From NCBI GenBank assembly GCA_905182565.1, contig CAJJCB010000013.1:1-56841 (forward strand): a stretch of DNA of 56,841 nt, given 5' to 3'. Position numbers and translations under genes: made by a program. How positions within the stretch are numbered: position 1 is the first letter of the stretch; every line of letters begins with the position of its first letter. Positions 1-14,703 of the stretch are shown in pieces. The notes beneath the pieces were generated by a model. It saw nothing but the letters and a program-made list of their open reading frames with translations. It was not told the DNA's origin and made no database searches. The DNA is from Acidimicrobiaceae bacterium (GTDB taxonomy: Bacteria > Actinomycetota > Acidimicrobiia > Acidimicrobiales > Poriferisodalaceae).

Positions 1-72
1 GGGCTTCCGGCAGGTGGTGTTGTCTTGACAGGCCAGCTTGGAGCAACTTCTTCTTTGGAATTCACACCGTAG
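1..72 (+). CDS. C-terminal end of an unidentified gene cut by the window start
   Basis: Frame 1 is open from the first base to a TAG at 70-72 and reads 23 residues beginning GLPAGGVVLTGQLG. The LPAG-x-VVLTG-x-LG pattern resembles the C-terminal part of 2-keto-4-pentenoate hydratase / fumarylacetoacetase-fold enzymes, but too little is present to assign a function. A hairpin at 100-125 follows, consistent with a transcript end. The frame could be open by chance, so this is tentative. Confidence 0.3.
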   Translation, partial: GLPAGGVVLTGQLGATSSLEFTP

Positions 73-99
73 ATCCTATGAACAGTCGAAGCAGAGGTG

Positions 100-125
100 T
101 GACCGCTTAGCTGATCTAGCGGTCA
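100..125. other. Short inverted repeat (8-bp perfect stem)
   Basis: TGACCGCT at 100-107 pairs exactly with AGCGGTCA at 118-125 across a 10-nt loop. There is no T-run on either side, so it is not a classical intrinsic terminator. It lies 27 bases after the stop of the partial gene at the window edge and could be its 3' hairpin. Confidence 0.4.
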
Positions 126-137
126 GCACGACCGGCT

Positions 138-226
138 ACCAAAACGACGAAAGCCGCCCGGCTGGGCGACGTGGAAGTAAAACATAGCACATCTAAATTT
201 TCATGTCCACTATCAAACCCCTATTT
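138..226 (+). repeat. Dispersed ~88-bp intergenic element, copy A
   Basis: This stretch aligns by eye with 10797-10883 over its whole length at roughly three quarters identity. Shared blocks include CGAAA, CCGCC, GGCGACGTG, ATAGC, ATCTAA and a TCCA..TCAAA..CC..TATTT tail. The CCGCC/GGCG blocks could form a small stem. Neither copy lies in a recognisable gene; this one sits in the 284-base stretch between the window-edge gene and the DUF1330 gene. Function is unknown. Confidence 0.5.
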
Positions 227-356
227 CTCAGTGTTTTCAGTACTTTTTGAGCTTTATTTACGTGTGGTGCTATTAGATAACCGCAAAGAACCCTTGCCTC
301 AACAGACAGCAGTTCTTTGCGGCCGCGAACCTTTAGTTCTAACGGATGCCCCGATG

Positions 357-644
357 CTAGCTCAGGCCTTTGGCAAGAACAGCTCGAGAGTCGGTTGAAG
401 ATAACCGCAACGGGAGAGCTTCTTGATACTCCGGGGAGTCATACCATTCCCTGAAAGCCTCGTCATCATCAAATTCAAGGACCACGAGTCTTGAACCATG
501 CCAATCTCCTTCAACGGACGTAACGTTGTTATCAACAATTATCGCTCGACCCCGACCAAGTGAAGAAGCGCTTGCCGCCTTCATGTAGCGTTCTAAACCA
601 TCTTGGTCATTGACCTCTTCTTGCACAACGAAATAAACTGACAT
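357..644 (-). CDS. DUF1330-like small protein
   Basis: A 95-residue protein of the ferredoxin-like dimeric alpha/beta-barrel fold. It opens MSVYFVVQEEVNDQDGLERYM and ends with the block FDDDEAFREWYDSPEYQEALPLR, typical of DUF1330 proteins. The start at 644 is chosen over an upstream in-frame ATG because the family fold begins there and an AGGAG ribosome site lies just before it. No enzymatic role is established for most DUF1330 members; they often sit near small-molecule catabolism genes. It follows the membrane protein gene at 767-1330 on the same strand by about 120 bases, so co-transcription is possible. A more distant relative lies at 48015-48416. Confidence 0.8.
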   Translation of the reverse strand: MSVYFVVQEEVNDQDGLERYMKAASASSLGRGRAIIVDNNVTSVEGDWHGSRLVVLEFDDDEAFREWYDSPEYQEALPLRLSSTDSRAVLAKGLS

Positions 645-766
645 TTCAATCTCCTCTATCTTCTCGGTCTGCTGGACGTAGACAACCCTAGGAGAGTTCC
701 GGAACCCTTGTGAGATTTTATTTACAACACCACCGGTGCTCGACTTAAGACACAACGAAATTAGCT

Positions 767-1330
767 TCAGGATTTTTTTGTTGATATTCGAGCAATGGCG
801 AAAGACCCCACAAGACCTCCCAAAAAACTTAGGAGAAGATCACTAACCGTATCTTCGTAGGTGAGATGCAAACCGCTGGTACCACTCTTCATAATAAGAT
901 ATTCCAAGAATTCCCAGAAAATAATAGCACTAGCACCGAAGCCGGTACCCAATGCGATTCGATTCCATGGAGCTGCTACACCCGGATGAATCATCGCGAC
1001 GAAAGCAGCACACAAAAACATCCAGTTAACGAAGTGCAACGCATCATCAAAATTTCGAACGTTATCGAACCAACCAAACAAATTACCCAAGAGATCCAGC
1101 AGGAACGGAGTTACTAGCAGCGCTGTAGGAACGTATGGGAACGTCTCTTTACGTCCTCTGAAAAACCAGATGGTTCCCATAACGATCGCTGACAGAGGGT
1201 AACCAACTGCTCGCGCAGCCCAACCTTTACCTTGTAGTCGTTCCATCGGAACGACTAATCCGACTAAAAGACTCAACACAAGGGCGACTATGACAATCCA
1301 CATAGCCATACGTTGCCGGCGCTGTTTCAT
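767..1330 (-). CDS. YjdF/DUF2238-like integral membrane protein
   Basis: A 187-residue hydrophobic protein with about five to six predicted membrane helices. Three landmarks match the DUF2238 (YjdF) family: DDALHFVNW in the middle, WEFLEYL later, and YEDTVSDLLLSFLGGLVG near the end. In this family the conserved acidic and His residues line the membrane region, but the substrate is unknown. The start ATG at 1330 precedes a short basic N-terminus and the first helix. It diverges from the alpha/beta hydrolase at 1413. Function is not assignable beyond the family. Confidence 0.7.
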   Translation of the reverse strand: MKQRRQRMAMWIVIVALVLSLLVGLVVPMERLQGKGWAARAVGYPLSAIVMGTIWFFRGRKETFPYVPTALLVTPFLLDLLGNLFGWFDNVRNFDDALHFVNWMFLCAAFVAMIHPGVAAPWNRIALGTGFGASAIIFWEFLEYLIMKSGTSGLHLTYEDTVSDLLLSFLGGLVGSFAIARISTKKS

Positions 1331-1412
1331 CTATCTAAGAGTAGTTAGTAGTTAAGTCATGCGCACTGAAGATATGCAACAATTAAGCAGCGCAATTTTG
1401 TATTGGAGAATT

Positions 1413-2102
1413 ATGAACAGACCGGTCGTTCTAGTGCATGGAGCATTCCATGGAGCCTGGTGCTGGGATCGCGTTACTTCCCACTTGGACGCTGCTGGCG
1501 TTGTCTGGAGAGCACCAGATCTTCCTAGCTGCGCCAATGCAGCTTCCGGCGCAGCAATCGATGAAGATACGGCAGCAGTGGAATCAGTTTTAGATAACCT
1601 TCCCGGCGATGAGCCGGCTGTGCTTCTTGGTCACTCCAGAGGCGGAGCAGTCATTTCCGAAGCCGGAACTCATCACAGGGTTGGATCTCTTGTTTATTTG
1701 ACTGCTTTGCTTCTAGAAAAAGGAGAGAATCCAGCTGGTCGAATTGAAACGAATTTAACCAAAGCAATGATAGAGAATGTTGACGGCTCTTTCAGTGCTG
1801 ATGTTTCTTTAGGCACAGAACTTTTCTACAACGACTGCGATGGAGACCAAATTAGTTTCGCAACTCGTCAATTACGGTCCCAAACTCTAGCTCTCGATAC
1901 CCGCAATTCCCGGCAAGCGTGGACTGAAAAGCCTTCGATCTATGTGATTTGCACGCGCGATAAAGCCATTACGCCAGATACCCAACGTTCGATGGCTGCC
2001 AAGGCAAACACGAGGCTCGAATGGGACACAGGCCATTCGCCATTTCTTAATCGACCCGAAGTTCTTGCAGCTTTGTTAATTGGTTTGAGCGTTGGGCCAT
2101 AG
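1413..2102 (+). CDS. Alpha/beta-fold hydrolase
   Basis: A 229-residue serine hydrolase of the esterase/hydroxynitrile-lyase-like branch. VLVHGAFHGAWCWD gives the HG oxyanion region, LGHSRGG the nucleophile elbow with catalytic Ser, and DTGHSPFLNRPE near the end supplies the catalytic His. The acid is probably the Asp in CTRDKAITP. The ATG at 1413 is preferred to upstream in-frame starts because GGAG precedes it and the fold begins immediately after. Length is near the usual 230-260 residues. The substrate cannot be told. It stands alone, divergent from the membrane gene and convergent with the dioxygenase gene at 2414. Confidence 0.85.
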   Translation: MNRPVVLVHGAFHGAWCWDRVTSHLDAAGVVWRAPDLPSCANAASGAAIDEDTAAVESVLDNLPGDEPAVLLGHSRGGAVISEAGTHHRVGSLVYLTALLLEKGENPAGRIETNLTKAMIENVDGSFSADVSLGTELFYNDCDGDQISFATRQLRSQTLALDTRNSRQAWTEKPSIYVICTRDKAITPDTQRSMAAKANTRLEWDTGHSPFLNRPEVLAALLIGLSVGP

Positions 2103-2413
2103 TCAGGAATTCAACAATCGAAAATGTTCTATTTTCTTGTACCTCTAGTTCGAAATATTTGTTGTGCTCAGTCTTACTCTGAACATTCGGGATGTATTCA
2201 CTCAACGGCGAATTCAAGCTGCTAGCAAGTACGCGCAATAACTATCAAATAACATCGTGCAACAATCTTTCTTAACTGGGTGTGCCAGCATAGAGAAGCG
2301 CTAGTCAATTAGCTGTTAAAGCCAACGGGTCTTAAGTCACATTCAAGCTGGTGATCAACGCACTAGAATTACGAATCATAGCAACAATCTCAGAACCCCT
2401 ATGTTGAACATTT
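2103..2413. other. 311-base convergent intergenic region, nothing recognised
   Basis: This AT-rich stretch lies between two convergent genes. I see no credible ORF, no strong hairpin followed by a T-run, and no repeat shared with the rest of the window. Confidence 0.6.
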
Positions 2414-3238
2414 CTAAGCGCAATGGATTAGAGGAAACCTTTGATTGTCGTCAGGGTATTGACCTGTTACTGAAGTCGTGTCTTCATCAGTAACAGTTGG
2501 ATCGCAACCTGCATGAGGAAACCATGTGACGTCATCGCCTAGCCAACGAGTAGATAGAGCTGCTCGCCTTTTGGCTCCCGAATTTCCTGGTGAACCATGA
2601 ATAATCCAGGCCGAAAAAAAGATTGCGTCTCCTGGCTTCACATCAAATCCGATGATTTCATATTCACTTCGAGATGCCTCAATGTCGGGACATTTTTCAC
2701 CCTCGAACTCTGAAGCCCAACCGTCTTTACCATCAAAAGCTTCCGGCGCATAATATGAACCCCAAGCGTGTGATCCTCTAACAAATTCGAGAGAACTGTC
2801 TGCAACTTTTGCTTCAGTAATGGCTACCCAGGCTGAGCAAATTTGCTTTCCGAGAAAAGGCCAGTAAGGAACGTCTTGATGCCATGGTGTTGGATTAGCT
2901 GTCGAAGGCTCTTTAATCAACAGGTGATCAAAATAGAAGCGAGACGAGCTAGATTCCATCAACGCAGCTGCTATTCCACCCACTTCAGACTTAAACACAA
3001 AATCGTTTATTACCGGATCAGTTTCCCATCGATAGCGACTAGTGAACAAACGGCCCTCTACAGCCCCCGGATTTGTATCAGTAACCCAAGGACCAGGATT
3101 AGCTAACTGACTATCGGCGACAGATGAAAGTTTTTCTAACCACTCATTACTTACTACCTGTTCAATTTTTACAACGCCGTTCTCTCGGTACTTATTTTTG
3201 AGTTCATCGGATGCCTGTTCGTGAACCAAGATAGACAC
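2414..3238 (-). CDS. Phytanoyl-CoA dioxygenase (PhyH) family protein
   Basis: A non-heme Fe(II)/2-oxoglutarate oxygenase of about 274 residues. The iron facial triad is visible: WHQDVPYWP supplies H120 and D122, and IIHGSPGNSG supplies H214, followed by the Arg-rich KRRAALSTRW that binds 2-oxoglutarate. PhyH-family members hydroxylate acyl-CoAs and diverse secondary metabolites, so the substrate is open. I choose the GTG at 3238: it lies five bases after a run of nine G that may act as a ribosome site, and an upstream ATG would add residues encoded by that homopolymer. A second PhyH gene is at 45929-47101. Confidence 0.85.
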   Translation of the reverse strand: MSILVHEQASDELKNKYRENGVVKIEQVVSNEWLEKLSSVADSQLANPGPWVTDTNPGAVEGRLFTSRYRWETDPVINDFVFKSEVGGIAAALMESSSSRFYFDHLLIKEPSTANPTPWHQDVPYWPFLGKQICSAWVAITEAKVADSSLEFVRGSHAWGSYYAPEAFDGKDGWASEFEGEKCPDIEASRSEYEIIGFDVKPGDAIFFSAWIIHGSPGNSGAKRRAALSTRWLGDDVTWFPHAGCDPTVTDEDTTSVTGQYPDDNQRFPLIHCA

Positions 3239-3500
3239 TAGACCCCCCCCCGCAAACCATCGATAGTTACGAAACAATTGTCACGCACGCTGCGATGTTA
3301 GCTCATTGACATAGCCAGCCGCATTACCTCAAATAGCGGCGCGTTAGAAGATACTGATATCCGCATGAAAATCGCCTTAAAGGATATTAATCCCACTCGT
3401 CAGAGTAGAAACAGTAGCCAATATTGGTCTATACAGTTTGAGTAAAAATATTTTTGATACTCAGATTAGTGCAGCCTTTGTTATTGACCTCAGCTAGCTA

Positions 3501-3830
3501 CTATGCAGCCTCTTGACAATTTTTTAGAGCCTGAGCCCTTGCGGCTACGACGGCAGTTCGCCGTTTCCACGACTTGCTCTTCCAATGAGCTAGTCGAGAG
3601 CGGTTTCTGCCGACTCTCGTTCGCTTCCAATGCGCTTTATGTTTCGGCGGCCGGTGAGCGGGCGGCGGTGCAACTATCTCATCGGCTTCTCTGTCGATGT
3701 CCAGAGCTGCCGCTAATCTAGTCAACCGACGAAGCTCTTCATTCTCGCGGTGCCTAACTGATCTTGACTTAGCAACATAGAATTCATGACTTCTTATTTT
3801 TTCGAAGTCTTCTACTTTGGGTTTGGCCAT
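3501..3830 (-). CDS. Small highly basic protein, unknown
   Basis: A 109-residue protein starting MAKPKVEDFEKIRSHEFYV, with a strong AGGAG site just before its ATG. The first half is mixed charge and probably helical; residues from about 55 on are dominated by Arg, Lys, His and Trp (PPKHKAHWKRTRVGRNRSR and WKSKSWKRRT). That pattern suggests nucleic-acid or ribosome binding, but I recognise no family. It has no close neighbour on its strand. The good ribosome site and the biased composition support a real gene rather than a chance frame. Confidence 0.6.
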   Translation of the reverse strand: MAKPKVEDFEKIRSHEFYVAKSRSVRHRENEELRRLTRLAAALDIDREADEIVAPPPAHRPPKHKAHWKRTRVGRNRSRLAHWKSKSWKRRTAVVAARAQALKNCQEAA

Positions 3831-4214
3831 TGCTTCTCCTCTTGCTGTTCCTGATGGATTAGCTTTTAGATGAAACTGTTTAGCGTTACCTCAACCCTAG
3901 TCGCAGTCGATGACGCCGCCGGACCAACACGTCAAAACTGGCCTCGATCGGGTTCACTTGTTAGGACTCGGACTGATTTGAGTTCAATGATTACGCGTCT
4001 CATGGCGACTCTATTGTTGGCAACGCCTGCCGATACCGACACTACCCAAATGAAACTTTTCAAGCATCACCACCTGCGCAGCAGCGCCCTACCAGAATCG
4101 TATTCGCTTCAATTAGGCGCCTAAGTTTTTGATGTGTCGTTGGTCACGAATGAACGCGGCAACCTATCTCATTGCATACCTTCTAACGACACGAGCTAAG
4201 GAGAGTATCGATCG
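3831..4214. other. 384-base intergenic region upstream of micropeptide 1
   Basis: This region separates the divergent basic-protein gene and the first micropeptide gene. It contains the conserved motif at 4133-4147 and the AGGAG site for the peptide at about 4199-4203. A 84-codon plus-strand frame at 3870-4124 has no ribosome site and no recognisable content, and I do not call it. Confidence 0.5.
4133..4147 (+). promoter_or_regulatory. Conserved upstream motif of the micropeptide genes, copy 1
   Basis: TGTGTCGTTGGTCAC matches TGTGTCGTTTGTCAC at 8011-8025 at 14 of 15 bases. Both lie 45-70 bases upstream of the two paralogous micropeptide start codons, while the sequence around them has diverged. 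It may be a regulator site or a -35 region; no -10 element at fixed spacing is obvious. Confidence 0.5.
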
Positions 4215-4343
4215 ATGACTATTCTTAAAATAATGACAAGCAAGCTTTTCGGTAGGAAAGAACCATGTTTTTATGAAACAAAGCAATGTAAAGAAACAAA
4301 GCAATCCCATATGACTCAACAGCTCGGACCAAGATCATATTAG
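4215..4343 (+). CDS. Micropeptide 1 of the QQLGPR(S/N)Y pair
   Basis: A 42-residue ORF with an AAGGAG site about 10 bases before its ATG. It is paralogous to the 38-residue ORF at 8070-8186: both have a Lys-rich N-terminus, a G-(R)-K-E-x-P-(C/S)-F-Y-(E/D)-(T/S)-K core and the C-terminus QQLGPR(S/N)Y. In the last eight codons every codon differs in its third base while seven residues are identical, which points to selection on the peptide. This copy has two Cys residues (18 and 25) that the other lacks. A small hairpin and a strong terminator follow. I do not recognise the family. Possible roles are a signalling or RiPP precursor peptide, a stress micropeptide or a dual-function RNA. Confidence 0.75.
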   Translation: MTILKIMTSKLFGRKEPCFYETKQCKETKQSHMTQQLGPRSY

Positions 4344-4810
4344 TGATCTATTCGTGAAACCTGAAGCTTGCTTTCCTTCCAGAGCAAGTTCCAGGCTGAG
4401 TATGTGAGGGCCGGCTCTTAGGAGCTGGCCCTCATACTTTTTAAGCCGCATCTTTTGATACCCAACTCAACTCTCATTTTTTGTTCGGCCGAGGCGAACG
4501 CTAAAAGTTTCCAAATTTACGATTTCGCCAGAAAGCGGAATTCTTCGAATCCAAGAAGCTTTCAAAAACTGGAAGCTCCAGTGCAATCAAAGGCCCTTGA
4601 GGGTAGCCCTACGAAAATTTACTGAGATAATATTCGGACCCTCTTAGACTTTGAATCTTAAACTACTTAAGCACTTGCTAATCAAGTTTGGTCTACTCCA
4701 GGCACAAGTGATTACTCCAATATTTCCGGATCTCCATACTGATAGCCTCACCACGAAGTCGAATATCAATCGACTATCTCATGTTTACGAACTGCTACGA
4801 GGACCACAAC
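4344..4810. other. 467-base intergenic region after micropeptide 1
   Basis: The first 100 bases hold the 3' region of the micropeptide transcript: a hairpin at 4365-4390 and the terminator at 4399-4442. The remainder up to the MaoC gene is AT-rich and holds no convincing gene. A frame beginning at 4651 overlaps the MaoC gene out of phase and is rejected. Confidence 0.5.
4399..4442 (+). terminator. Intrinsic terminator of micropeptide 1
   Basis: A long GC-rich stem pairs 4399-4417 with 4422-4439 (AGTATG-GAGGGCC-GGCTC against GAGCTGGCCCTCATACT, one bulge and one wobble) over a 4-nt loop and runs into TTTTT. A smaller stem (AGCTTGCT/AGCAAGTT) precedes it at 4365-4390. The only plus-strand gene just upstream is the micropeptide, so the transcript appears to be monocistronic and about 250-300 nt. 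Confidence 0.85.
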
Positions 4811-5281
4811 ATGCCTTTAGATATCCCATGCAACGAAAGATGGTACGAAGACTTTTCTGAAGGTGAATCATTTCTTCTCGGTAGCGTTGAAATGGTCGAG
4901 AAAGAAATGCTCGATTTCGCAAATCAGTTTGATCCTCAACGGTTTCATATTGACCCCGAGGCCGCAGCTAAAACTCTCTACGGAGGTTTAATAGCTTCTG
5001 GTTGGCATACCGGTTCGTTAATGATGAAATTAACTGCCGAAGGTTTCTTGGGCGAACATAGCGTTGGTTCAACCGGACTTTCAGAGTTGTCTTGGCCATC
5101 CGCTGTCCGAGTTGGAGACATTCTTAGGCTCAAGATTGAAATTTTAAGCAAGCGTGTTAGCGGTTCGAGGCCGAATATAGGTTTCATCGAGCTCAAAACC
5201 CAAATGATTAAGAAGAATGATGAAATAGCGTTGCAGAGTATAGGAACGCTGCTAATCGAAAGAAAAACTGTTTCTGATTAA
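4811..5281 (+). CDS. MaoC-like hotdog dehydratase
   Basis: A 156-residue single-hotdog protein. FDPQRFHIDPEAA followed by YGGLIASGWHTGSLMMKL is the MaoC/R-hydratase signature, with the catalytic Asp and His equivalents in the FDPQxFHxD segment. Such proteins hydrate or dehydrate enoyl-CoA thioesters in fatty-acid, sterol side-chain or polyhydroxyalkanoate metabolism. The ATG at 4811 has a GAGG site at proper spacing and matches the family N-terminus. Length is normal for this class. It has no co-directional partner; a TauD-type dioxygenase converges on it. The exact substrate is unknown. Confidence 0.85.
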   Translation: MPLDIPCNERWYEDFSEGESFLLGSVEMVEKEMLDFANQFDPQRFHIDPEAAAKTLYGGLIASGWHTGSLMMKLTAEGFLGEHSVGSTGLSELSWPSAVRVGDILRLKIEILSKRVSGSRPNIGFIELKTQMIKKNDEIALQSIGTLLIERKTVSD

Positions 5282-5523
5282 AAGCTCTTCTCCTCATGTT
5301 TCTGAAGTGGTTAAATTAATTTGTCGACGATTTCAATTCAGAACCCTCGCCCTATTCACCTAAACAACCCGAAGTAAATCGAAACAAACGTCACCTGGCA
5401 TTTGTTTCCTGATAGTTCGGCCAATATCTGGCAATCCTTCTGCTGGTTATTTAGCGATCACAGTAATCAAGCAATTCCATACACGTTTATATCCAACAGA
5501 AAATTTCGAGCGGCTTAAACAAA

Positions 5524-6378
5524 TTACTCGTGGAGTGTTACTCCAGCTCCACGCACTCGCGTTTGTCTCATGTTTCGGCGAAAGCGGTCAGCGTCGTAAC
5601 CAGTACCTCGATGCAGAACACACCGATTGTCCCAAAAAATTGTGTCGCCCGGCTGCCAACTGTGAGACCACCGGTTTCTAGGCTCTGTAGCAAAATCGTT
5701 AAGTCCGTCAATCAAACGGCGGCTCTCTATACCACTCCATCCGACAATCGAACGGGCATGCGAGCCAAGGTAATAGTTACGGCTGCCGTTACCAGGGTTA
5801 GTTCTAACGAGCTTCTGTTCCACTGGAGGCAAAGATGCCGCATGGTTATCATCAACAGGCGCAGTCTTAGTCCGGCTGAAAACATAGTCATGAAGAACAT
5901 GGAGATTGTTGATCGCGTTCTGTTTCGCAGCGTCTAATCGTTTGTATGCGGCTCTCTGGCTTACAAACTCAGTTTCGCCTCCCTCAGCAGGTACTTCATA
6001 GGCATGAAGAATCGATATGTAGGAAGGAACTAGCCTAAAAGACGAATCTGAATGCCAAAGGTTATTGCCCTTAAGCGCTCGAGTTTGTGGATCTGACTCT
6101 CCGCGCTTTTTGTTGTCGTCGACAACGTTACCAACGGTGCCAATATAGATTTTTTCGCCCGTTCGACCAAACGCAATGTGGCTCTCTTCTGGTTCGCCGA
6201 ACGATTTAGTCAAGGCCATCTGAGCCTCATCGTTCATATTCTGTTCAGGAAATAGCAAAACTGAATGTTCATCAATTGCTGCGCTCAAACTTGTGATCTG
6301 GTGAGGTTCTAGCGGCACAGCCAAATCGATGCCAGTAATCTTCGCACCGAAGTCATCGTGAAGAGCTTCGATTCTCAT
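5524..6378 (-). CDS. TauD/TfdA-family dioxygenase
   Basis: An Fe(II)/2-oxoglutarate-dependent dioxygenase of about 284 residues. LWHSDSSF supplies iron ligands H109 and D111, and CVLHRGTGYD supplies H256, followed by an Arg-rich segment (FRRNMRQTR) that binds the 2-oxoglutarate carboxylate. TauD relatives act on taurine, alkylsulfates, 2,4-D and various carboxylates; sequence alone does not give the substrate. The ATG at 6378 begins the usual family N-terminus (MRIEALHDDFGAKITGIDL); a GTG six codons upstream is possible. It follows the TIGR03084 gene on the same strand with a gap of about 110 bases. Confidence 0.85.
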   Translation of the reverse strand: MRIEALHDDFGAKITGIDLAVPLEPHQITSLSAAIDEHSVLLFPEQNMNDEAQMALTKSFGEPEESHIAFGRTGEKIYIGTVGNVVDDNKKRGESDPQTRALKGNNLWHSDSSFRLVPSYISILHAYEVPAEGGETEFVSQRAAYKRLDAAKQNAINNLHVLHDYVFSRTKTAPVDDNHAASLPPVEQKLVRTNPGNGSRNYYLGSHARSIVGWSGIESRRLIDGLNDFATEPRNRWSHSWQPGDTIFWDNRCVLHRGTGYDADRFRRNMRQTRVRGAGVTLHE

Positions 6379-6489
6379 GGAAATAGCTTGCCACACGAGA
6401 CGCCTCGAAGCGAGCTTGTCTTATTTCCAATACCATTTCATGGTCCTCGCAAAGCCTTATCAACCATGGGAGTAGGAACTGTTTTTCTT

Positions 6490-7260
6490 TCAGGCTTTAT
6501 CGCTTATACGTTTAGGTTCAATCCAAGGTTGTGCGATTCGCATCCACTCAGTCGCTAGGTCCCCTTCGGTCTCAACTTCAGACTCGTGGAGCGGTACTCG
6601 CCTCGTTATGACCTTACAAAAATCATAAGCGGTTGAGTTCACGCGATCCGTGGCATCCTCTGATCCCCAAACCCATTGCGCCCCGCTCGGACTGGTGAGC
6701 TCAACTCGCATGGGTTGGGTTGGTGGAGACAACCCTTGATTGACGTAACTAAACTCGCGAGTGACGACACCAATATGTGCAATGTGGCGAAGGCGGTCTG
6801 TTCGCGGGTAATAACAGCCGAAGGTATCGGCCAAGTCATGTGAGTGCGTCCAGGTTTCTAGTAGCCGACTCGTTGCCAACGACCGAGCACCGATGTCTGG
6901 TCCCAGCCAAGCGATCCGGTCCTTCGGGTCTAAGTTCCGCAAACCTTCGATCATTTCCGCACGAACGTTGAGGAACCATTCCCAGAGTTGAGAGCCTGTC
7001 ATTGTCTGAATCTCGGGGCCACCTAACCCGTGAGCCGAAACCTCACCATTGGCTAAGCGCTCGCGCATTACAGCAAACGTTGTTGGATCCGTGACCGCTA
7101 CGTGACAAAGTAAATCAGTGCTACCAAGATGGAGAATGGTTTCGTGGCTGTCCCAACCCTCAGCGACGGTGGGGGCGCTCCACTGCTCTTCAGTTAAGGA
7201 ATCAACAACGGTCGACAAAGCCAGAGTCTCAGCTTCAAGATCATCGCAAATCTGCCACAT
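6490..7260 (-). CDS. TIGR03084/mycothiol-dependent maleylpyruvate isomerase-like protein
   Basis: A 256-residue DinB-like four-helix metal protein common in Actinobacteria. The N-terminal part has the pattern TVAEGWDSHETILHLGSTD with a candidate metal His (H44), and the middle holds ETWTHSHDLADT, which supplies further His ligands. Relatives include mycothiol-dependent maleylpyruvate isomerase, so a thiol-linked isomerase or transferase role is possible, but most TIGR03084 members are uncharacterised. The start at 7260 has only a weak ribosome site. It lies between the dioxygenase and the DMSP-lyase-like gene on the same strand, possibly one transcription unit. Confidence 0.8.
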   Translation of the reverse strand: MWQICDDLEAETLALSTVVDSLTEEQWSAPTVAEGWDSHETILHLGSTDLLCHVAVTDPTTFAVMRERLANGEVSAHGLGGPEIQTMTGSQLWEWFLNVRAEMIEGLRNLDPKDRIAWLGPDIGARSLATSRLLETWTHSHDLADTFGCYYPRTDRLRHIAHIGVVTREFSYVNQGLSPPTQPMRVELTSPSGAQWVWGSEDATDRVNSTAYDFCKVITRRVPLHESEVETEGDLATEWMRIAQPWIEPKRISDKA

Positions 7261-7330
7261 TGAAACAATCTAACCCATATCAAAGATGTCGGTAGCGCAC
7301 AAAACCTGCAGAGCAACCATGCTCTCGCTT

Positions 7331-7900
7331 TTAGCCCTTGGTTACTCCAGCTCCCCACAGCACATACAACGCAACAAGTGGAGTGTCGCCAGCTTGAACC
7401 GTGTGTATATCTAAAGGATGGTTGTATAAAACTGATTCGGGTTTCACTTCAACCAGGGTTTTGGAGCCGCCATATCTCCATTGAGCTGTACCTGAAATAG
7501 TTAGATACATCTCTTGTGGAAGATGATTGTGAATCGGGTATGAGCAACCACGTTCAACATACATTATCCCAACTTCTAGGCCCGGTAGATCAAAGACATC
7601 AGACAAAACGCATAGCGCTCTTTGTTTGCCTTTATCGTTCCAACGCGAAGACTCAACCCATCGCAACGAAGCTGCGAATTCGGTGAACTCGCGTGCTCGA
7701 GGCGTATCGCGAACATCGCCAAGGTTCTGCAATGCAATTAGCTTCTTAGATTCATAAGCTATCGGCGCTGCTTTCTTGATTGCTAATCGAAGCTGCTGAG
7801 CACCTTCTTTAGCGATCGCGTTGCTCGTCAGTGAAATGGCGCTATCCGCCGCGCTGATTAGCCATGTGCGTATTTTGTCGTGATCTTGAAGCACGTTCAT
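7331..7900 (-). CDS. DMSP-lyase-like cupin (DddL/DddQ type)
   Basis: A 189-residue protein with a C-terminal cupin. CSYPIHNHLPQEMYLTISG matches cupin motif 1 of DMSP lyases with metal ligands H124 and E130 (and H126), the conserved Y132 and the W after it; the second motif has NHPLDIHTVQAG with H166 as the last ligand. The N-terminal ~100 residues are helical, as in DddL/DddQ. Such enzymes cleave dimethylsulfoniopropionate to DMS and acrylate. Other sulfonium or small-acid chemistry cannot be excluded because this cupin family has many non-lyase relatives. The ATG at 7900 diverges from the second micropeptide gene 170 bases away. Confidence 0.7.
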   Translation of the reverse strand: MNVLQDHDKIRTWLISAADSAISLTSNAIAKEGAQQLRLAIKKAAPIAYESKKLIALQNLGDVRDTPRAREFTEFAASLRWVESSRWNDKGKQRALCVLSDVFDLPGLEVGIMYVERGCSYPIHNHLPQEMYLTISGTAQWRYGGSKTLVEVKPESVLYNHPLDIHTVQAGDTPLVALYVLWGAGVTKG

Positions 7901-8010
7901 GATCTCACCAGCAGCCTCGAATTCTGAAATCTTAAACGCTGGCGTTCAAATCTCCTCTTCCTCGGTCCATCTATTAGATAAACGCTCTGCCTTCTTATAG
8001 CAATTAGCAC

Positions 8011-8025
8011 TGTGTCGTTTGTCAC
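8011..8025 (+). promoter_or_regulatory. Conserved upstream motif of the micropeptide genes, copy 2
   Basis: TGTGTCGTTTGTCAC differs by one base from the site at 4133-4147 and lies 45 bases before the second micropeptide ATG. It also lies about 110 bases upstream of the divergent DMSP-lyase-like gene, so it could influence both. Confidence 0.5.
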
Positions 8026-8069
8026 TTCTCGAACAGTCTGCCTCTTCAATTCCTTATCGTGAAAGCACT

Positions 8070-8186
8070 ATGAAAAAGTCACTTTCGAAACTCACTTACA
8101 AAGCGCTTACCGGAAAAGAAGCACCAAGCTTTTATGACTCCAAGAGAGCGCATCAAAATCAGCAACTAGGTCCTCGTAACTACTAG
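8070..8186 (+). CDS. Micropeptide 2 of the QQLGPR(S/N)Y pair
   Basis: A 38-residue ORF starting MKKSLSKLTYKALTGKEA and ending QQLGPRNY, with the central P-S-F-Y-D-S-K block that parallels the ORF at 4215-4343. It has no Cys, and is five residues shorter between the FY..K block and the C-terminus. The ribosome site is weak (GTGAAAG). An initiation region close to leaderless is possible because TATCGT lies nine bases upstream of the ATG. The gene ends just before two hairpins, the second with a T-rich tail. The family is not recognised. The shared architecture (motif, peptide, hairpin, terminator) with the first copy argues for a real, duplicated micropeptide gene. Confidence 0.72.
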   Translation: MKKSLSKLTYKALTGKEAPSFYDSKRAHQNQQLGPRNY

Positions 8187-8637
8187 TAGCTAAACAAATC
8201 TAAGTCGGTGGCCCCCCCTGCCGCCGGCTTTCTTTATAAGGATCGGCCACCTGCGCCGGTCCTTATTTATTTTTGGACTAGTCAGATTACCTACCAGATG
8301 CTCAGAAACGAGCATGGTTAGGGGCGCTATCTCACGGGTTCTAGCCATCAACGAACCCGAAATAGCTTAACTTGCACAATTCTTTTTGCAGAAGTGCTTG
8401 CATCAAGGGCTTTTCATTACTTTCGAAACGCTTGCGTATCGAACCCCTTAGACTGACAATGATTCCAGCGGGTGCGGCTGCACCTGCTGGCGTCACTGAA
8501 AGCCCTCACTCGATGATCTCATCCATCAGACGGTGGGGACTTTCACTTTTTCGTTCCAGCTCGCAGCCCTTGCCAATAACTACGGCATGAGTACGAGCAC
8601 TTTTCTCAATCAATTTACAGCTGCTCAACCATGAGTT
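8187..8637. other. 451-base region after micropeptide 2
   Basis: The first 90 bases hold the micropeptide 3' region with two hairpins. At 8463-8492 there is an imperfect palindrome (CCAGCGGGTGC / GCACCTGCTGG). At about 8550-8575 a stretch TTTTTCGTTCCAGCTC..AGCC closely resembles the 3' part of the dispersed repeat at 10797-10883. A 72-codon frame at 8372-8590 lacks a ribosome site or recognisable content. No RNA gene is recognised. Confidence 0.45.
8236..8275 (+). terminator. Intrinsic terminator of micropeptide 2
   Basis: ATAAGGATCGGC at 8236-8247 pairs with GCCGGTCCTTAT at 8255-8266 (12 bp, one wobble) over a 7-nt loop, followed by TTATTTTT. A six-pair hairpin (GGTGGC/GCCGCC at 8207-8225) precedes it, mirroring the hairpin-then-terminator layout of micropeptide 1. 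Confidence 0.85.
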
Positions 8638-9015
8638 TTAAATTAAATTTTCATAGAGTTTGAGCTCAATTTGATTACCGTCTAGGTCACGGATGTAGAC
8701 GGCTGGGCCCCAGCCTTGAGCACCGTAAATGGATTTAAACTCTCGAACAGTTTCTACATCATCATGATCCAAGAGAGTCTCTAGGTCTCCCTCGACATAT
8801 AAGGCTATATGGTCAACGTTTTCGCCTGAACGTTCAGTTTCGAGAAGATCTATGATCGTGGTTTCATTTATCTTCATTGAGAGGAAGGGTGCTTTACCTG
8901 ATTTCCACTCCTCGTAGCGCAGCGGCTCCATCCCAAGCCGATCCCGGTACCAGCACATCGCCGTTTCAGCGTCGGAAACATTTATTACTAGATGATCTAT
9001 TCCAATAACTTTCAT
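8638..9015 (-). CDS. VOC-family (glyoxalase fold) protein
   Basis: A 125-residue vicinal-oxygen-chelate protein made of two beta-alpha-beta3 modules. The metal ligands of the fold are in place: H8 (IDHLVINV), H69 (VDHIALYV) and E117 (QIELKLYE). VOC proteins serve as extradiol dioxygenases, isomerases, thiol transferases or epimerases, so activity is not predicted. It begins 14 bases downstream of the acyl-CoA ligase stop on the same strand, so the two are probably one operon. That makes a role in processing a small acid or its CoA ester plausible. Confidence 0.8.
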   Translation of the reverse strand: MKVIGIDHLVINVSDAETAMCWYRDRLGMEPLRYEEWKSGKAPFLSMKINETTIIDLLETERSGENVDHIALYVEGDLETLLDHDDVETVREFKSIYGAQGWGPAVYIRDLDGNQIELKLYENLI

Positions 9016-9029
9016 TTTGGATGACCTTC

Positions 9030-10709
9030 CTAACTCTCTTTTATCATTACTTCACGTAGCTCTCGTTTCAATATCTTTCCGCTCGCATTACGAGGAAGCT
9101 GTTCGGTCACAAATTTCATGTGTGTAGGCACCTTAAACTTTGCGATTCGTTTTGATAAAAAGTCCTGGAGTTCCTTTGCATCAATGGTCTGGCCAACTTT
9201 TACCATCACCGTTGCTGCTACTTCTTCGCCTAATCGGTCATGTGGCACGCCATAGACCGCCGCTTCGTAAACTCCCGGGTGCTCATATATAGCTGCCTCG
9301 ACCTCGGCGCTGTAAATATTTTCGCCGGCTCTAAGCACCATGTCTTTAGCCCGGTCAGCTACAAAAATAAACCCATCTTCATCTAGCCATCCGATGTCTC
9401 CCGACTTAAGCCACCCATCGCTAATCGCCTCAGCAGTTTCGTCTGGTTTACCCCAGTAACCGCGAATAAGGTTGGCTCCGCGGAAACAAATCTCACCACG
9501 TTCGTTGGGACCTAAGACATTACCCTTTTCATCGATCACAGACATATCCATGGATGGAGACGCTCGACCTGCTGAGGTCGGCTTCGCTACATAGTCGTTA
9601 CCGGAATTTTGTGGCCCTAGCCCATTGGTTTCGGTCATTCCATAGCCAATACCTGGCCTCGCTGTCTCGAACCCGTCTTCTATTCTTCTCACCAGCTCGG
9701 GAGGAGCAGGGGCGCCTCCGCCACTTACTGAGGACAAGCTAGAGGTATCGCGTGTAGCGAAATCCGGACTTTCCAACAATTCCCAACTCATAGTCGGAAC
9801 ACCAACGAATGTAGTAATTTTTTCGCGCTCGATAAGTTCTAAAGCTCGGTCAGGGTCCCATCGATGCATCATCACCAATCGCGACCCAATCACGAAGGTT
9901 CCCATCATCACTGGGACTAAACCAGTCACGTGAAAGAGAGGAACACACAAAATTACTGCAGGGTCACCTTGGTCAGCTCCAACTTCCCCTCCAGATCCGG
10001 TAAGTTTTCCTACTTCGGCCCTACAGGCAAAACCGACTAAAGCACTCAGTACCGCTCTATGCGTTGAGACTGCTCCTTTGGGGAATCCTGTAGTGCCAGA
10101 TGTATACAAAATGGTGGCATCATCGTCTGTGTCGATAGCTATTTCTGGCATCTCTGCGCCCAGCTCGACAACATCTTCATAGCGATCGATTCCTGAAGGA
10201 AGCTCTCCAGCAACTCTTATAGCTATGGCTGCAGCCTCAGACGCTTCCAAAATCGGAGCAACCCGTTTCACACGTTCTTCGTCAACGATGACAAGTTTAG
10301 AACCTGAATCTTTTAGTCCATATTCAAGCTCGTCGGTCACCCACCACGCATTCAGCGCAACTGCGATCCCACCGATGGAGGTGATTGCAGCAAAAGCAAC
10401 TATCCATTCCGGATAGTTGCGCATGGCGATCGCTACGCGATCACCTTTTTCGATTCCGTAGTTGTGCACTAGGGCGTGGGCGAGTCCATCAATATGTTGA
10501 ACAAGATCGGTGTAACTCCAAGTTTCATCTTCATAAACTAAATACGGTTTATCACCGTAAAGCCGGGCAATCATAAATAAGTCACGAAGTGAATTCGGGG
10601 TACGCGAATAAACTTTAGTCGGCAAACCCATTACTTCTTGCGTCGTAATCTCAAAGGGGCAGCCAGGACCAGTGAGCGTCGAAACTGCTTCATCCCAAGT
10701 CATGTTCAT
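9030..10709 (-). CDS. AMP-forming acyl-CoA synthetase
   Basis: A 559-residue ANL-superfamily ligase. It carries the P-loop TILYTSGTTGFPKGA, the A5 motif YGMTETNG, the hinge region LKSGDIGWLDEDGF and the C-terminal PRNASGKILKREL with the catalytic Lys. These enzymes activate a carboxylic acid as acyl-AMP and transfer it to CoA. The substrate class (fatty, aromatic or sterol-derived) is not evident. Two near-adjacent ATGs occur at 10709 and 10703; either is possible. It forms a likely operon with the VOC gene and is divergent from a second acyl-CoA ligase, across an intergenic region that holds the dispersed 88-bp repeat. Confidence 0.9.
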   Translation of the reverse strand: MNMTWDEAVSTLTGPGCPFEITTQEVMGLPTKVYSRTPNSLRDLFMIARLYGDKPYLVYEDETWSYTDLVQHIDGLAHALVHNYGIEKGDRVAIAMRNYPEWIVAFAAITSIGGIAVALNAWWVTDELEYGLKDSGSKLVIVDEERVKRVAPILEASEAAAIAIRVAGELPSGIDRYEDVVELGAEMPEIAIDTDDDATILYTSGTTGFPKGAVSTHRAVLSALVGFACRAEVGKLTGSGGEVGADQGDPAVILCVPLFHVTGLVPVMMGTFVIGSRLVMMHRWDPDRALELIEREKITTFVGVPTMSWELLESPDFATRDTSSLSSVSGGGAPAPPELVRRIEDGFETARPGIGYGMTETNGLGPQNSGNDYVAKPTSAGRASPSMDMSVIDEKGNVLGPNERGEICFRGANLIRGYWGKPDETAEAISDGWLKSGDIGWLDEDGFIFVADRAKDMVLRAGENIYSAEVEAAIYEHPGVYEAAVYGVPHDRLGEEVAATVMVKVGQTIDAKELQDFLSKRIAKFKVPTHMKFVTEQLPRNASGKILKRELREVMIKES

Positions 10710-10796
10710 ATTGACGCAAGATAACTAACTATCAACGTCTCAGGACCAAAAAACAAGAAAAATCATTGTATCGGAACCAAAACTAGCCATATTCAC

Positions 10797-10883
10797 ACCA
10801 AAAATGCGAAAACCGCCTCTTCGGCGACGTGAAAATGAATTATAGCGTATCTAATTTTTCGTTTCCAGCTCAAAGCCTTATTT
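10797..10883 (+). repeat. Dispersed ~88-bp intergenic element, copy B
   Basis: It aligns with 138-226 (see that entry) in the same orientation, with the GGCGACGTG block intact. It lies between the divergent acyl-CoA ligase genes, ending about 90 bases before the 10975 start codon. Its 3' part (TTTTTCGTTTCCAGCTC) also recurs in reduced form near 8550-8575. Confidence 0.5.
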
Positions 10884-10974
10884 TTTGGTAGTTCCACAGA
10901 TTTTCTACATGTCGCACCTACTTATTCATCTTCCCCACTGGTATCCAAGGCAGTATTTAGCTAGCTTTCCCCAC

Positions 10975-12507
10975 ATGAGTAGCCCTTCTTATGATTGGAT
11001 CGCCCACCATGCTCTAGTGCGCGGCGACAAATTAGCAGTCCACGATCTAGATTCAGGTCGTAAATTCACTTATACAGAGATGAATGAGCGAACAAGTCGG
11101 CTTGCAACAGCATTACGATCGGAATTCAACATAGAGCGAGGCGACAGAGTCGCAGTTCTGGCAGAAAACGATAGCAACACCCTTGAGGTCCAATTTGCTT
11201 GCTGGAAGCTCGGAGCCATATTCGTGCCACTTAACTGGCGGCTAACCATCCCAGAGCTCGAATATATAGTTGGTGATGCAGAACCAACAGTTCTTTTCCA
11301 TGATGATGCACTAAGCGAACAAAGTATAAAACTCTCTCAAATTTGCGATATCTCTCATCGCGTAACCTGGGGTCGCTCTATTGAGGAAGCCGCAGCTTAC
11401 GAAGAAGTCCTAGCCCTTCATGAACCTATGGACACGTGCGTCGAATGCACCCACGATGACCCGGTCACCATCATGTATACCTCTGGGACTACAGGCCGAC
11501 CCAAAGGGGTCATAATTACTCAAGGAATGACTTTCTGGAACGCTGTTAACTGCGTCGAGTTTTATTCCCTAAGTGAGTCAATGATAAACATTGTTTTCTT
11601 ACCTCTGTTCCACACCGGCGGGTTGAACGTCTTCACAAACCCAGCATTTCATTTCGGGGGCACAAATCTAGTAATGAAAACGTTTGACCCTTCCAAAGCC
11701 TTAGCTCTACTAACTGATCCAGAAATCGCGATCACACACCTGATTGGCGTTCCTGCTAATTGGCTTTTCATGAGCCAAGTTCCTGAATTTGAAGATGCTT
11801 CTTTCCCCACGATAATTGCTCCTTGCGTCGGAGGTTCACCAACTCCAGTTCCTCTTATCGAAGCATGGGCAGGAAAAGGTCTACCTCTTCAGCAAGCATT
11901 TGGTATGACTGAAACCAGTCCTCTTGTGCTGGCGCTCCCGGCTGACAAATGTACTGAAAAAATTGGTTCTGCTGGGCTGCCTGGGATGCATACTGCGGTC
12001 CGGATCGTCACCGAGGATGGTCGCGAAGCCGAAATAGGCGAGAATGGAGAACTTTGGTGTAAGGGACCCAATATCACTCCTGGATATTGGAACGATCCTC
12101 AAGCAACAGTTGAGTCTTTCGAAGATGGCTGGCTAAAAACAGGTGACGCGGCACGACGTGACGAGGATGGATTCTATTACATTGTTGACCGTTGGAAAGA
12201 CATGTACATATCAGGTGGAGAAAACGTATATCCCGCAGAAGTGGAGAGCGTTATCTACCAGCTTCCGCAAATCGGCGAAGTTGCAGTAATCGGTATCCCT
12301 GACGAAAAATGGGTTGAAGCTGGTCGTGCTATCGTCGTCGTTAAACCTGGTGAGTCTCTTACCGAAAGCGAGATCATAAATCACTGCAGGGAAAACCTCG
12401 CTCGTTTCAAAGTTCCTCAGTCAGTGATTTTTATTGATGAGATTCCCCACAACGCAACGGGAAAAGTACTAAAACGAGAACTTCGCGACCAGCATAGTGA
12501 TGCATAG
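10975..12507 (+). CDS. AMP-forming acyl-CoA synthetase (FadD/4CL-like)
   Basis: A 510-residue ANL ligase with TIMYTSGTTGRPKGV, FGMTETSP, LKTGDAARRDEDGF and NATGKVLKREL. The ATG at 10975 (MSSPSYDWIAHHALVRGDKLAV) matches the usual family N-terminus; the 30 codons upstream in frame look unlike this family. No clear ribosome site precedes it. It is only distantly similar to the ligase at 9030-10709, so the two are not a recent duplication. The CaiB-type CoA-transferase gene starts 10 bases after its stop, so the two probably form an operon for activating and moving CoA on an acid substrate. Confidence 0.9.
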   Translation: MSSPSYDWIAHHALVRGDKLAVHDLDSGRKFTYTEMNERTSRLATALRSEFNIERGDRVAVLAENDSNTLEVQFACWKLGAIFVPLNWRLTIPELEYIVGDAEPTVLFHDDALSEQSIKLSQICDISHRVTWGRSIEEAAAYEEVLALHEPMDTCVECTHDDPVTIMYTSGTTGRPKGVIITQGMTFWNAVNCVEFYSLSESMINIVFLPLFHTGGLNVFTNPAFHFGGTNLVMKTFDPSKALALLTDPEIAITHLIGVPANWLFMSQVPEFEDASFPTIIAPCVGGSPTPVPLIEAWAGKGLPLQQAFGMTETSPLVLALPADKCTEKIGSAGLPGMHTAVRIVTEDGREAEIGENGELWCKGPNITPGYWNDPQATVESFEDGWLKTGDAARRDEDGFYYIVDRWKDMYISGGENVYPAEVESVIYQLPQIGEVAVIGIPDEKWVEAGRAIVVVKPGESLTESEIINHCRENLARFKVPQSVIFIDEIPHNATGKVLKRELRDQHSDA

Positions 12508-14396: not shown

Positions 14397-14703
14397 TTAG
14401 GACCTCCAGCGCCTTAGTTTACAGTACTTCAAAAATAACGGGTTCTCGTGAAACGAAACGAGGGCGATCCGTCCATATGAAGGTCATGGAAACAAACAAC
14501 CGCAGCCATTTACTTGCGTAAGTCAACCGAGGACGAAGGCAAAAGCGTCGCAGCTCAAGAGCGACAACTACGCACCAAGGCCGAGCAGCTACTTGCTTGT
14601 CAGCTATATGCGGTTTGTTTCGATTAGTTAGGGTGCCTGTGGGGTAACGCTAATTGGTTCATTGTCTGCCGGAAAGCGTCTAGCTACAAGTAGCTTCTTG
14701 AAC
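14397..14703. other. 307-base intergenic region containing a recombinase remnant
   Basis: The stretch between the divergent J-protein gene and the exported repeat protein contains the truncated serine recombinase fragment at 14502-14627 and otherwise no recognisable gene. Confidence 0.6.
14502..14627 (+). pseudogene. Serine recombinase (resolvase/invertase) N-terminal remnant
   Basis: One frame reads 41 residues, AAIYLRKSTEDEGKSVAAQE and on to QLYAVCFD, then an in-frame TAG. The block YLRKSTEDEGKSVAAQER is the N-terminal catalytic motif of large serine recombinases, with the nucleophile Ser in the RKS step, and AEQL....YAVCFD matches the next beta strand of that fold. No start codon precedes it in frame before a TGA, and the rest of the catalytic domain, the zinc ribbon and the C-terminal domain are absent. 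It is a relic of an integrated element, not an active gene. Confidence 0.7.

What the first reader, a model, noticed from the sequence alone, without database searches (positions are those of the whole stretch)
4215..8186. Two paralogous ~40-residue peptide genes ending in QQLGPR(S/N)Y
The ORFs at 4215-4343 and 8070-8186 code for 42- and 38-residue peptides that share a K-rich start, a G-x-K-E-x-P-x-FY-x-x-K core and the C-terminus QQLGPR(S/N)Y. All eight final codons differ at the third base while seven residues are kept, so selection acts on the peptide. Each gene has a similar upstream motif, a small hairpin and an intrinsic terminator. They lie 3.7 kb apart, flanking the MaoC, TauD, TIGR03084 and DMSP-lyase-like genes. 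The family is not one I recognise. A precursor peptide, a small stress protein or a toxin-like peptide are possibilities; none is proven. The final Tyr and the conserved GPR are candidate processing or recognition points.
Basis: partly seen in the sequence, partly recalled or inferred. Interest (0 to 1): 0.85.

Follow-up and report, generated by a model that had tools for sequence, protein, structure and literature searches.

The report
Genus-specific paired small-protein genes
An uncultured actinobacterium carries two related genes for tiny 38- and 42-residue proteins, one of them kept unchanged in a sister species and neither resembling anything known; this is a real but probably ordinary example of the many small lineage-specific proteins whose job nobody knows.

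Summary
Two ORFs (4215-4343, 8070-8186, +) encode related basic peptides ending QQLGPR(S/N)Y. Decisive evidence is a sister species: its copy of the second gene differs by 8 substitutions, all third-position and silent, so the 38-residue protein is unchanged while flanking intergenic DNA is 75-80% identical. Each gene looks like a stand-alone unit: an upstream box exact only twice in the held genome, a second box 15 nt on, the ORF, two tandem hairpins and a U-run. The first peptide is longer through an in-frame 18-nt duplication; its support is weaker, as no orthologue was found. No credible relative outside the genus was found (39 family, 397 order, 395 class genomes, overlapping sets; one GTDB-wide tail-pattern scan; IMG/VR; phages; plasmids), and no match in Pfam, NCBIfam, PHROGs, PADLOC or PDB. 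A RiPP precursor loses ground: no SPASM or YcaO protein in either genome. Best reading: co-regulated, genus-restricted microproteins, perhaps with a docking tail; the function is inferred, not shown. Genus-restricted small proteins are common (PMC11364881, passages), so interest is moderate. A structured RNA candidate lies at 8400-8560.

The parts
4133..4147 (+). upstream box TGTGTCGTTGGTCAC of gene 1
   Evidence: only two exact matches to TGTGYCRTTNGTCAC in the held own genome, one before each gene (the pattern was written from these copies and the sister's); ends 67 nt before ATG
4163..4173 (+). second box CCTATCTCATT, 15 nt after the first
   Evidence: 10 of 11 identical and at the same spacing upstream of the sister genome's gene 2; 1 of 20,000 shuffles reaches this
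4198..4203 (+). Shine-Dalgarno-like AAGGAG of gene 1
   Evidence: read by eye from the sequence
4215..4343 (+). gene 1, 42-residue peptide MTILKIMTSKLFGRKEPCFYETKQCKETKQSHMTQQLGPRSY
   Evidence: no orthologue found in the sister genome, whose contig stops inside MaoC
4275..4310 (+). in-frame 18-nt tandem duplication (ETKQCK/ETKQSH), which explains the extra length of peptide 1
   Evidence: GAAACAAAGCAATGTAAA / GAAACAAAGCAATCCCAT, 14 of 18 identical, compared by eye on the output; Tandem Repeats Finder at score 30 did not list it
4360..4395 (+). hairpin 1 after gene 1
   Evidence: fold, z = -6.27 for 4341-4445
4403..4441 (+). hairpin 2 plus CTTTTT, intrinsic terminator of gene 1
   Evidence: 15-pair stem followed by a T-run, + strand only
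8011..8025 (+). upstream box TGTGTCGTTTGTCAC of gene 2
   Evidence: sister genome has TGTGCCATTTGTCAC at the same distance, 44 nt, from ATG
8041..8051 (+). second box of gene 2 (CCTCTTCAATT; CCTCTCTCATT in the sister)
   Evidence: same 15-nt spacing; three mismatches to the two-box pattern in this copy
8070..8186 (+). gene 2, 38-residue peptide MKKSLSKLTYKALTGKEAPSFYDSKRAHQNQQLGPRNY
   Evidence: 8 silent, 0 replacing substitutions against the sister genome; the upstream in-frame TTG extension is not conserved
8202..8230 (+). hairpin 1 after gene 2
   Evidence: also folds in the sister genome
8236..8274 (+). hairpin 2 plus TTATTTTT, intrinsic terminator of gene 2
   Evidence: kept in the sister genome

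Best explanation
These are two paralogous, separately transcribed genes for small basic proteins (38 and 42 aa, calculated pI 10.1 and 9.6) that exist, as far as the collections searched show, only in one genus of uncultured Acidimicrobiales-type Actinomycetota. Shown by comparison: the second is a coding gene under purifying selection, the two are homologous, they share a two-box upstream element whose first box is found exactly nowhere else in the held genome, and each is followed by tandem hairpins with a U-run. Inferred: the two boxes are a promoter or operator for a dedicated regulator, so both proteins are made under the same condition; each folds as a short helix, a G-P turn carrying Phe-Tyr, and a second helix running into the invariant QQLGPR-x-Y tail; the tail docks on a partner (a larger protein complex or RNA) whose activity the microprotein adjusts. 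The duplicate pair would give two versions of one adaptor, the first with an extended linker and two cysteines.
For: Identical 38-aa product in a sister genome with 8 third-position changes (2 of 200,000 random placements gave no amino-acid change); coding identity 93.2% against 80.5% upstream and 74.6% downstream. Paralogy E = 4e-10. First box unique to the pair among exact matches and second box at the same spacing. Terminator-like sites on the + strand only, kept in the sister for gene 2. Hydrophilic (GRAVY -0.85 and -1.24; no membrane-span predictor was run). Two helices in the AlphaFold model of peptide 2, H5-14 and H21-33, mean pLDDT 75. Stand-alone genes among ordinary metabolic genes.
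Against: No transcript, footprint or peptide data. AlphaFold pTM is only 0.34 on a two-sequence alignment, so the fold is weak. The best hydrophobic moment is not beyond shuffles (33% of shuffles reach it for peptide 2, 90% for peptide 1), so an amphipathic helix is not established. Gene 1 has no orthologue, so its own selection is untested. No sigma-70-type promoter was called before either gene. The window's own gene 2 has three mismatches to the two-box pattern, and the second-box test compared gene 1 with the sister's gene 2, the better-matching copy. The genome scan for the first box also shows one site with one mismatch and one match of the reversed control. Partner and docking role are inference only.
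Confidence: 0.35

Rival explanations
1. Precursor peptides of a ribosomally made, modified product (RiPP) or a secreted signal: an N-terminal leader is cut off and the QQLGPR-x-Y tail is processed or recognised.
For: Length, a separate conserved C-terminal block ending in Tyr, and two paralogues are typical of precursor families (recalled knowledge).
Against: No SPASM-domain protein and no YcaO in either the own or the sister genome (0 of 2 each), while 8 and 5 of 14 control genomes ring; no maturase or peptide exporter recognised among the 49 window ORFs scanned with Pfam, 5 of which had no match; gene 2 has no Cys, so lanthipeptide rings are impossible in it; the leader region of gene 2 is as invariant as the rest between the two species. 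Other maturase classes were not searched genome-wide, and the contig ends 4.2 kb left of gene 1.
Confidence: 0.12
2. Toxin-like or antimicrobial peptide, or the toxin of a type I toxin-antitoxin pair repressed by an RNA (for instance the structured element at 8400-8560).
For: Small basic peptides with strong terminators; a conserved structured RNA candidate lies 0.2 kb downstream of gene 2.
Against: Hydrophilic, unlike the usual hydrophobic type I toxins (recalled); no PADLOC or PHROG match; no antisense partner identified, though none was searched for systematically; peptide 2 identical in both species.
Confidence: 0.1
3. A small RNA with a hairpin-rich 3' end, in which the short ORF is secondary (dual-function RNA).
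For: Tandem hairpins with z = -6.3 and -5.2, kept in the sister for gene 2.
Against: All eight substitutions within the ORF are silent third-position changes, the signature of coding; the hairpin sequences of the two genes look unrelated by eye apart from their arrangement; no Rfam match.
Confidence: 0.1
4. An ordinary lineage-specific orphan small protein with a mild housekeeping or structural role (for example a ribosome- or nucleoid-associated accessory) and no specific regulation.
For: [quoted passage not shown] basic composition fits nucleic-acid contact.
Against: A box exclusive, as an exact match, to the two genes suggests dedicated regulation.
Confidence: 0.3

Closest known systems
Genus-specific small-protein families of unknown function in the Global Microbial smORF Catalog (PMC11364881; passages seen)
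   Same: Under 100 aa, confined to one genus, no Pfam domain.
   Different: Here a paralogous pair with a shared two-box upstream element and, for one gene, silent-only divergence was shown. I could not check whether this peptide is itself in that catalogue.
RiPP precursor peptides such as PqqA and MftA (recalled, no call)
   Same: Short, with a conserved C-terminal block and a terminal Tyr (MftA ends in Val-Tyr, recalled).
   Different: No SPASM radical-SAM or YcaO protein in the genome; the Glu and Tyr of the PqqA-type spacing (recalled) do not align between the two paralogues.
Type I toxin peptides (recalled, no call)
   Same: Tiny stand-alone genes with strong terminators.
   Different: Hydrophilic; no antisense RNA identified.

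Membership tests
Protein-coding gene under purifying selection (gene 2) | silent changes in excess of replacing ones between orthologues | tested here: met
   8 silent, 0 replacing, all at third positions; 2 of 200,000 random placements as good. One pair of genomes only
Protein-coding gene under purifying selection (gene 1) | silent changes in excess of replacing ones between orthologues | not testable with these tools
   no orthologue found; sister contig breaks inside MaoC. Paralogue comparison only: 7 of 8 final residues kept with all 8 codons changed
RiPP precursor | maturase encoded nearby or in the genome | tested here: not met
   SPASM 0 of 2 and YcaO 0 of 2 genomes; none recognised among 49 window ORFs. 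Other maturase classes were not searched in the whole genome
RiPP precursor | modified, cleaved product | not testable with these tools
   needs mass spectrometry
Type I toxin | hydrophobic membrane-spanning helix | tested here: not met
   GRAVY -0.85 and -1.24, pI 9.6 and 10.1; judged from composition, no membrane-span predictor was run
Type I toxin | antisense or repressing RNA | not tested
   a neighbouring structured RNA candidate exists at 8400-8560 but pairing was not tested systematically
Any catalogued protein family | profile match in Pfam, NCBIfam, PHROGs, PADLOC or a solved structure | tested here: not met
   0 families for either peptide at E up to 10; 0 PDB chains for the pair profile
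Genus-restricted orphan small protein | relatives only within one genus | tested here: met
   credible matches in 2 of 39 family, 2 of 397 order and 1 of 395 class genomes (weak rows in 12, 2 and 7 further genomes judged chance); GTDB-wide tail-pattern scan, 1 hit, the sister. Metagenomes were not searched

The most novel reading that the evidence does not exclude
The two peptides are the sole targets of a dedicated regulator and form, perhaps with the structured RNA candidate at 8400-8560, a genus-specific regulatory island in which a new kind of microprotein uses a QQLGPR-x-Y tail to dock on and retune a core machine such as the ribosome or RNA polymerase.
Probability: 0.08. Interest if true: 0.65.

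Novelty: new member of a known kind. Interest (0 to 1): 0.36.

Why it matters
It is a well-supported case of a small protein of the size that automatic annotation tends to miss, found from sequence alone and backed by a sister genome. The two-box upstream element, whose first box is exclusive to the pair in the held genome, makes its regulation directly testable. If a function were found it would show how a single genus gained a new co-regulated protein pair. Without a function it is one of very many lineage-specific small proteins.

Tried and rejected
Distant relatives: weak profile or protein rows in other genomes (3; 8; 13; 2, one of which, L010, was already) were read by six-frame profile alignment of the fetched loci (25 loci: L003-L005, L009-L029, L057). 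All are partial, 10 of 25 lie in open frames of more than 100 codons (tally), and none ends in GPR-x-Y-stop; I treat them as chance. That script split frames at stops, so rows with stops inside were seen only as fragments. An earlier look may have missed the matched place in L018 and L028, which lie near contig ends; one search covers them.

A third QQLGPR-coding stretch in the own genome (G000:C14:10500) reads QQLGPR followed at once by a stop and lies opposite a 450-codon open frame on the other strand, which I read as a transporter from its GPIAGALADRFDRR stretch (recalled motif, no profile search succeeded).

Positional orthologues: of 15 family genomes (of 39) holding the neighbouring cupin gene, only the own and sister genomes have the peptide beside it; none of the other five neighbour proteins tested (glyoxalase, TIGR03084, acyl-CoA ligase, MaoC, TauD) was found in the flanks held (about 1.5 kb where the contig allowed) in the other 13, so the comparison says little.

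Chance hits: peptide 1 in 35 phage records, of which 20 were listed (E 3-4; most of the annotated ones in baseplate proteins); peptide 2 in one record of the plasmid collection (E about 10). Peptide 2 in phages and peptide 1 in plasmids: no match.

N-terminal amphipathicity is not beyond shuffles. No fold search was run because the model is too weak (pTM 0.34). A short match between the RNA candidate and the start of gene 2 was seen by eye and dropped as low-complexity; pairing was not computed. 'ECF promoter' as a name for the two boxes was not pursued: one search gave a listing only and no paper from it was opened.
Full report
What is there. The window is a whole contig, C13, of a 2.65-Mb, 27-contig genome (95.6% complete). 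Its only held same-genus relative, G001, has a contig C245 that I identify, from equal length, contig number and match place, with CAJQGN010000245.1, titled an uncultured Acidimicrobiales bacterium MAG. NCBI places that name in Actinomycetota, Acidimicrobiia. The two ORFs are as described: 4215-4343 (42 aa) and 8070-8186 (38 aa), both on the + strand.

Is the similarity more than chance? BLASTP of the pair gives E = 4e-10 with 15 of 41 identical. Among 774 ORFs of 20-80 aa in the window compared with each other, the pair is the best outside a repetitive gene at 14.8-15.4 kb. The last eight codons differ at every third base while seven residues stay. The 42-residue peptide contains an 18-nt in-frame tandem duplication (4275-4310; 14 of 18 bases identical, compared by eye on the output; not listed by Tandem Repeats Finder). 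It accounts for the gap of six residues in the alignment.

Is the peptide under selection? The sister contig aligns to window 5145-11400 at 86% identity. Over gene 2 there are eight substitutions, all at third positions and all silent, and the 38-residue products are identical. Random placement of eight substitutions with the same transition count left the protein unchanged in 2 of 200,000 trials. Identity is 93.2% in the ORF, 80.5% in the upstream intergenic stretch and 74.6% in the stretch after the terminators up to the glyoxalase gene. Codon changes in three neighbours were cupin 35 silent and 37 replacing, glyoxalase 25 and 10, TIGR03084 51 and 36. One of the other five reading frames of the same stretch also changes little (2 residues) but holds stops in both genomes. 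The longer TTG-initiated reading of gene 2 is not conserved upstream of the ATG, which supports the ATG. For gene 1 no orthologue was found in the sister assembly: the contig ends inside MaoC, and the first 5 kb of the window finds only one 64% match there. So the selection evidence for gene 1 is indirect.

Transcription unit. TGTGTCGTT(G/T)GTCAC occurs before both genes. The held own genome has two exact matches to TGTGYCRTTNGTCAC, these two, plus one further site with one mismatch and one match of the reversed control pattern; the pattern was written from these copies and the sister's. Fifteen bases after the box lies a second box, CCTATCTCATT in gene 1 and CCTCTCTCATT in the sister's gene 2; 1 of 20,000 shuffles gives a match as good in register. 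In the window's own gene 2 the second box is weaker (CCTCTTCAATT; three mismatches to the two-box pattern). A plain sigma-70 scan calls no promoter before either gene, so promoter or operator function is inferred. Downstream of each ORF are two tandem hairpins and a U-run, on the + strand only (the scan of 5.7 kb found 10 terminator-like sites against 5.8 in shuffles; fold z = -6.27 and -5.17 with 0 of 200 shuffles as good). Those of gene 2 fold equally well in the sister (z = -5.06), where a U-G pair of hairpin 1 becomes U-A (read by eye).

Distribution. Peptide 2 against 61 relatives: only own and sister genomes, plus three weak rows. The pair profile: credible in 2 of 39 family genomes, 2 of 397 order genomes and 1 of 395 class genomes (the sister was evidently not in that draw). 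These sets overlap and the order and class sets are samples. The weak rows (13 rows in 12 genomes, 2 in 2, and 8 in 7) were examined and judged chance. The tail pattern QQLGPR-x-Y-stop was scanned against one genome for each of 84,980 GTDB-220 species and hit once, in the sister (the window's own genome may be left out there). It hit nothing in IMG/VR, where a profile-based search also gave 62 pattern matches but no confirmed relative. The tail scan cannot see relatives with a different tail or a TGA stop. Phages and plasmids gave only chance hits or none. No match in Pfam, NCBIfam, PHROGs, PADLOC or PDB sequences. Metagenomes could not be searched.

What it might do. Both peptides are basic and hydrophilic (pI 9.6 and 10.1; GRAVY -0.85 and -1.24). 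AlphaFold on the two-sequence alignment gives two helices (5-14, 21-33) at mean pLDDT 75 but pTM 0.34, a weak model. All 49 ORFs of at least 100 aa kept by a longest-first, non-overlap rule were scanned with Pfam; 5 of 49 had no match. The rest are largely acyl-CoA, dioxygenase, luciferase-like, hydrolase and central-metabolism genes, with no peptide maturase, peptide exporter, toxin or phage gene recognised. SPASM and YcaO proteins are absent from the own and sister genomes (0 of 2 each) while 8 and 5 of 14 control genomes ring. A RiPP precursor is therefore unlikely, though other maturase classes were not searched and the contig ends 4.2 kb left of gene 1. The most economical reading is a pair of co-regulated microproteins acting by binding, with the QQLGPR-x-Y tail as the most conserved and thus most likely contact surface between paralogues. 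The binding role is inference.

Known or new. A search for the string QQLGPR anywhere in the 5.39-million-paper library found nothing. A search combining Acidimicrobiia, small protein, sORF and marine found 21 papers with three of the four terms; the 8 listed contain no mention of Acidimicrobiia (listing only). Other listings showed catalogues, reviews and unrelated papers, of which only PMC11364881 was opened, and there only passages were seen. [quoted passage not shown] So a genus-restricted orphan small protein is a common kind of thing. This is a new, well-supported member, with an unusually clear shared upstream element. I could not check whether the catalogue already contains it.

Noticed in passing
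window 8400-8560 (+): A non-coding stretch between gene 2 and the glyoxalase gene, conserved in the sister genome (17 substitutions in 8400-8555, spread 7/4/6 over the codon positions of one frame), folds into two tandem hairpins followed by ACTTTTT on the + strand (z = -4.3 here, -7.6 in the sister; the - strand folds about as well here, z = -4.0). Changes at 8482, 8487 and 8503 appear by eye to keep or improve pairs. Candidate small RNA; no Rfam match. An earlier count said about 93% identity; 17 in 156 is 89%.
   Followed up: partly
window 14662-16254 (+): Gene with SBBP beta-propeller repeats containing three 183-nt direct repeats (87 and 77% to the reference copy).
   Followed up: no
window 1-5000: The first 5 kb (DUF1330, alpha/beta hydrolase, PhyH, gene 1) has no DNA match in the 93%-complete sister genome apart from one 64% stretch: either an assembly gap or a species-specific segment.
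   Followed up: partly
window 3501-3830 (-): 109-aa Lys/Arg-rich ORF beside gene 1 without a Pfam or NCBIfam match.
   Followed up: no
window 7331-7900 (-): Cupin-like protein matching Pfam DMSP_lyase over its C-terminal part only; found in 15 of 39 family genomes and fairly fast-evolving between the sister species (35 silent, 37 replacing codon changes).
   Followed up: no
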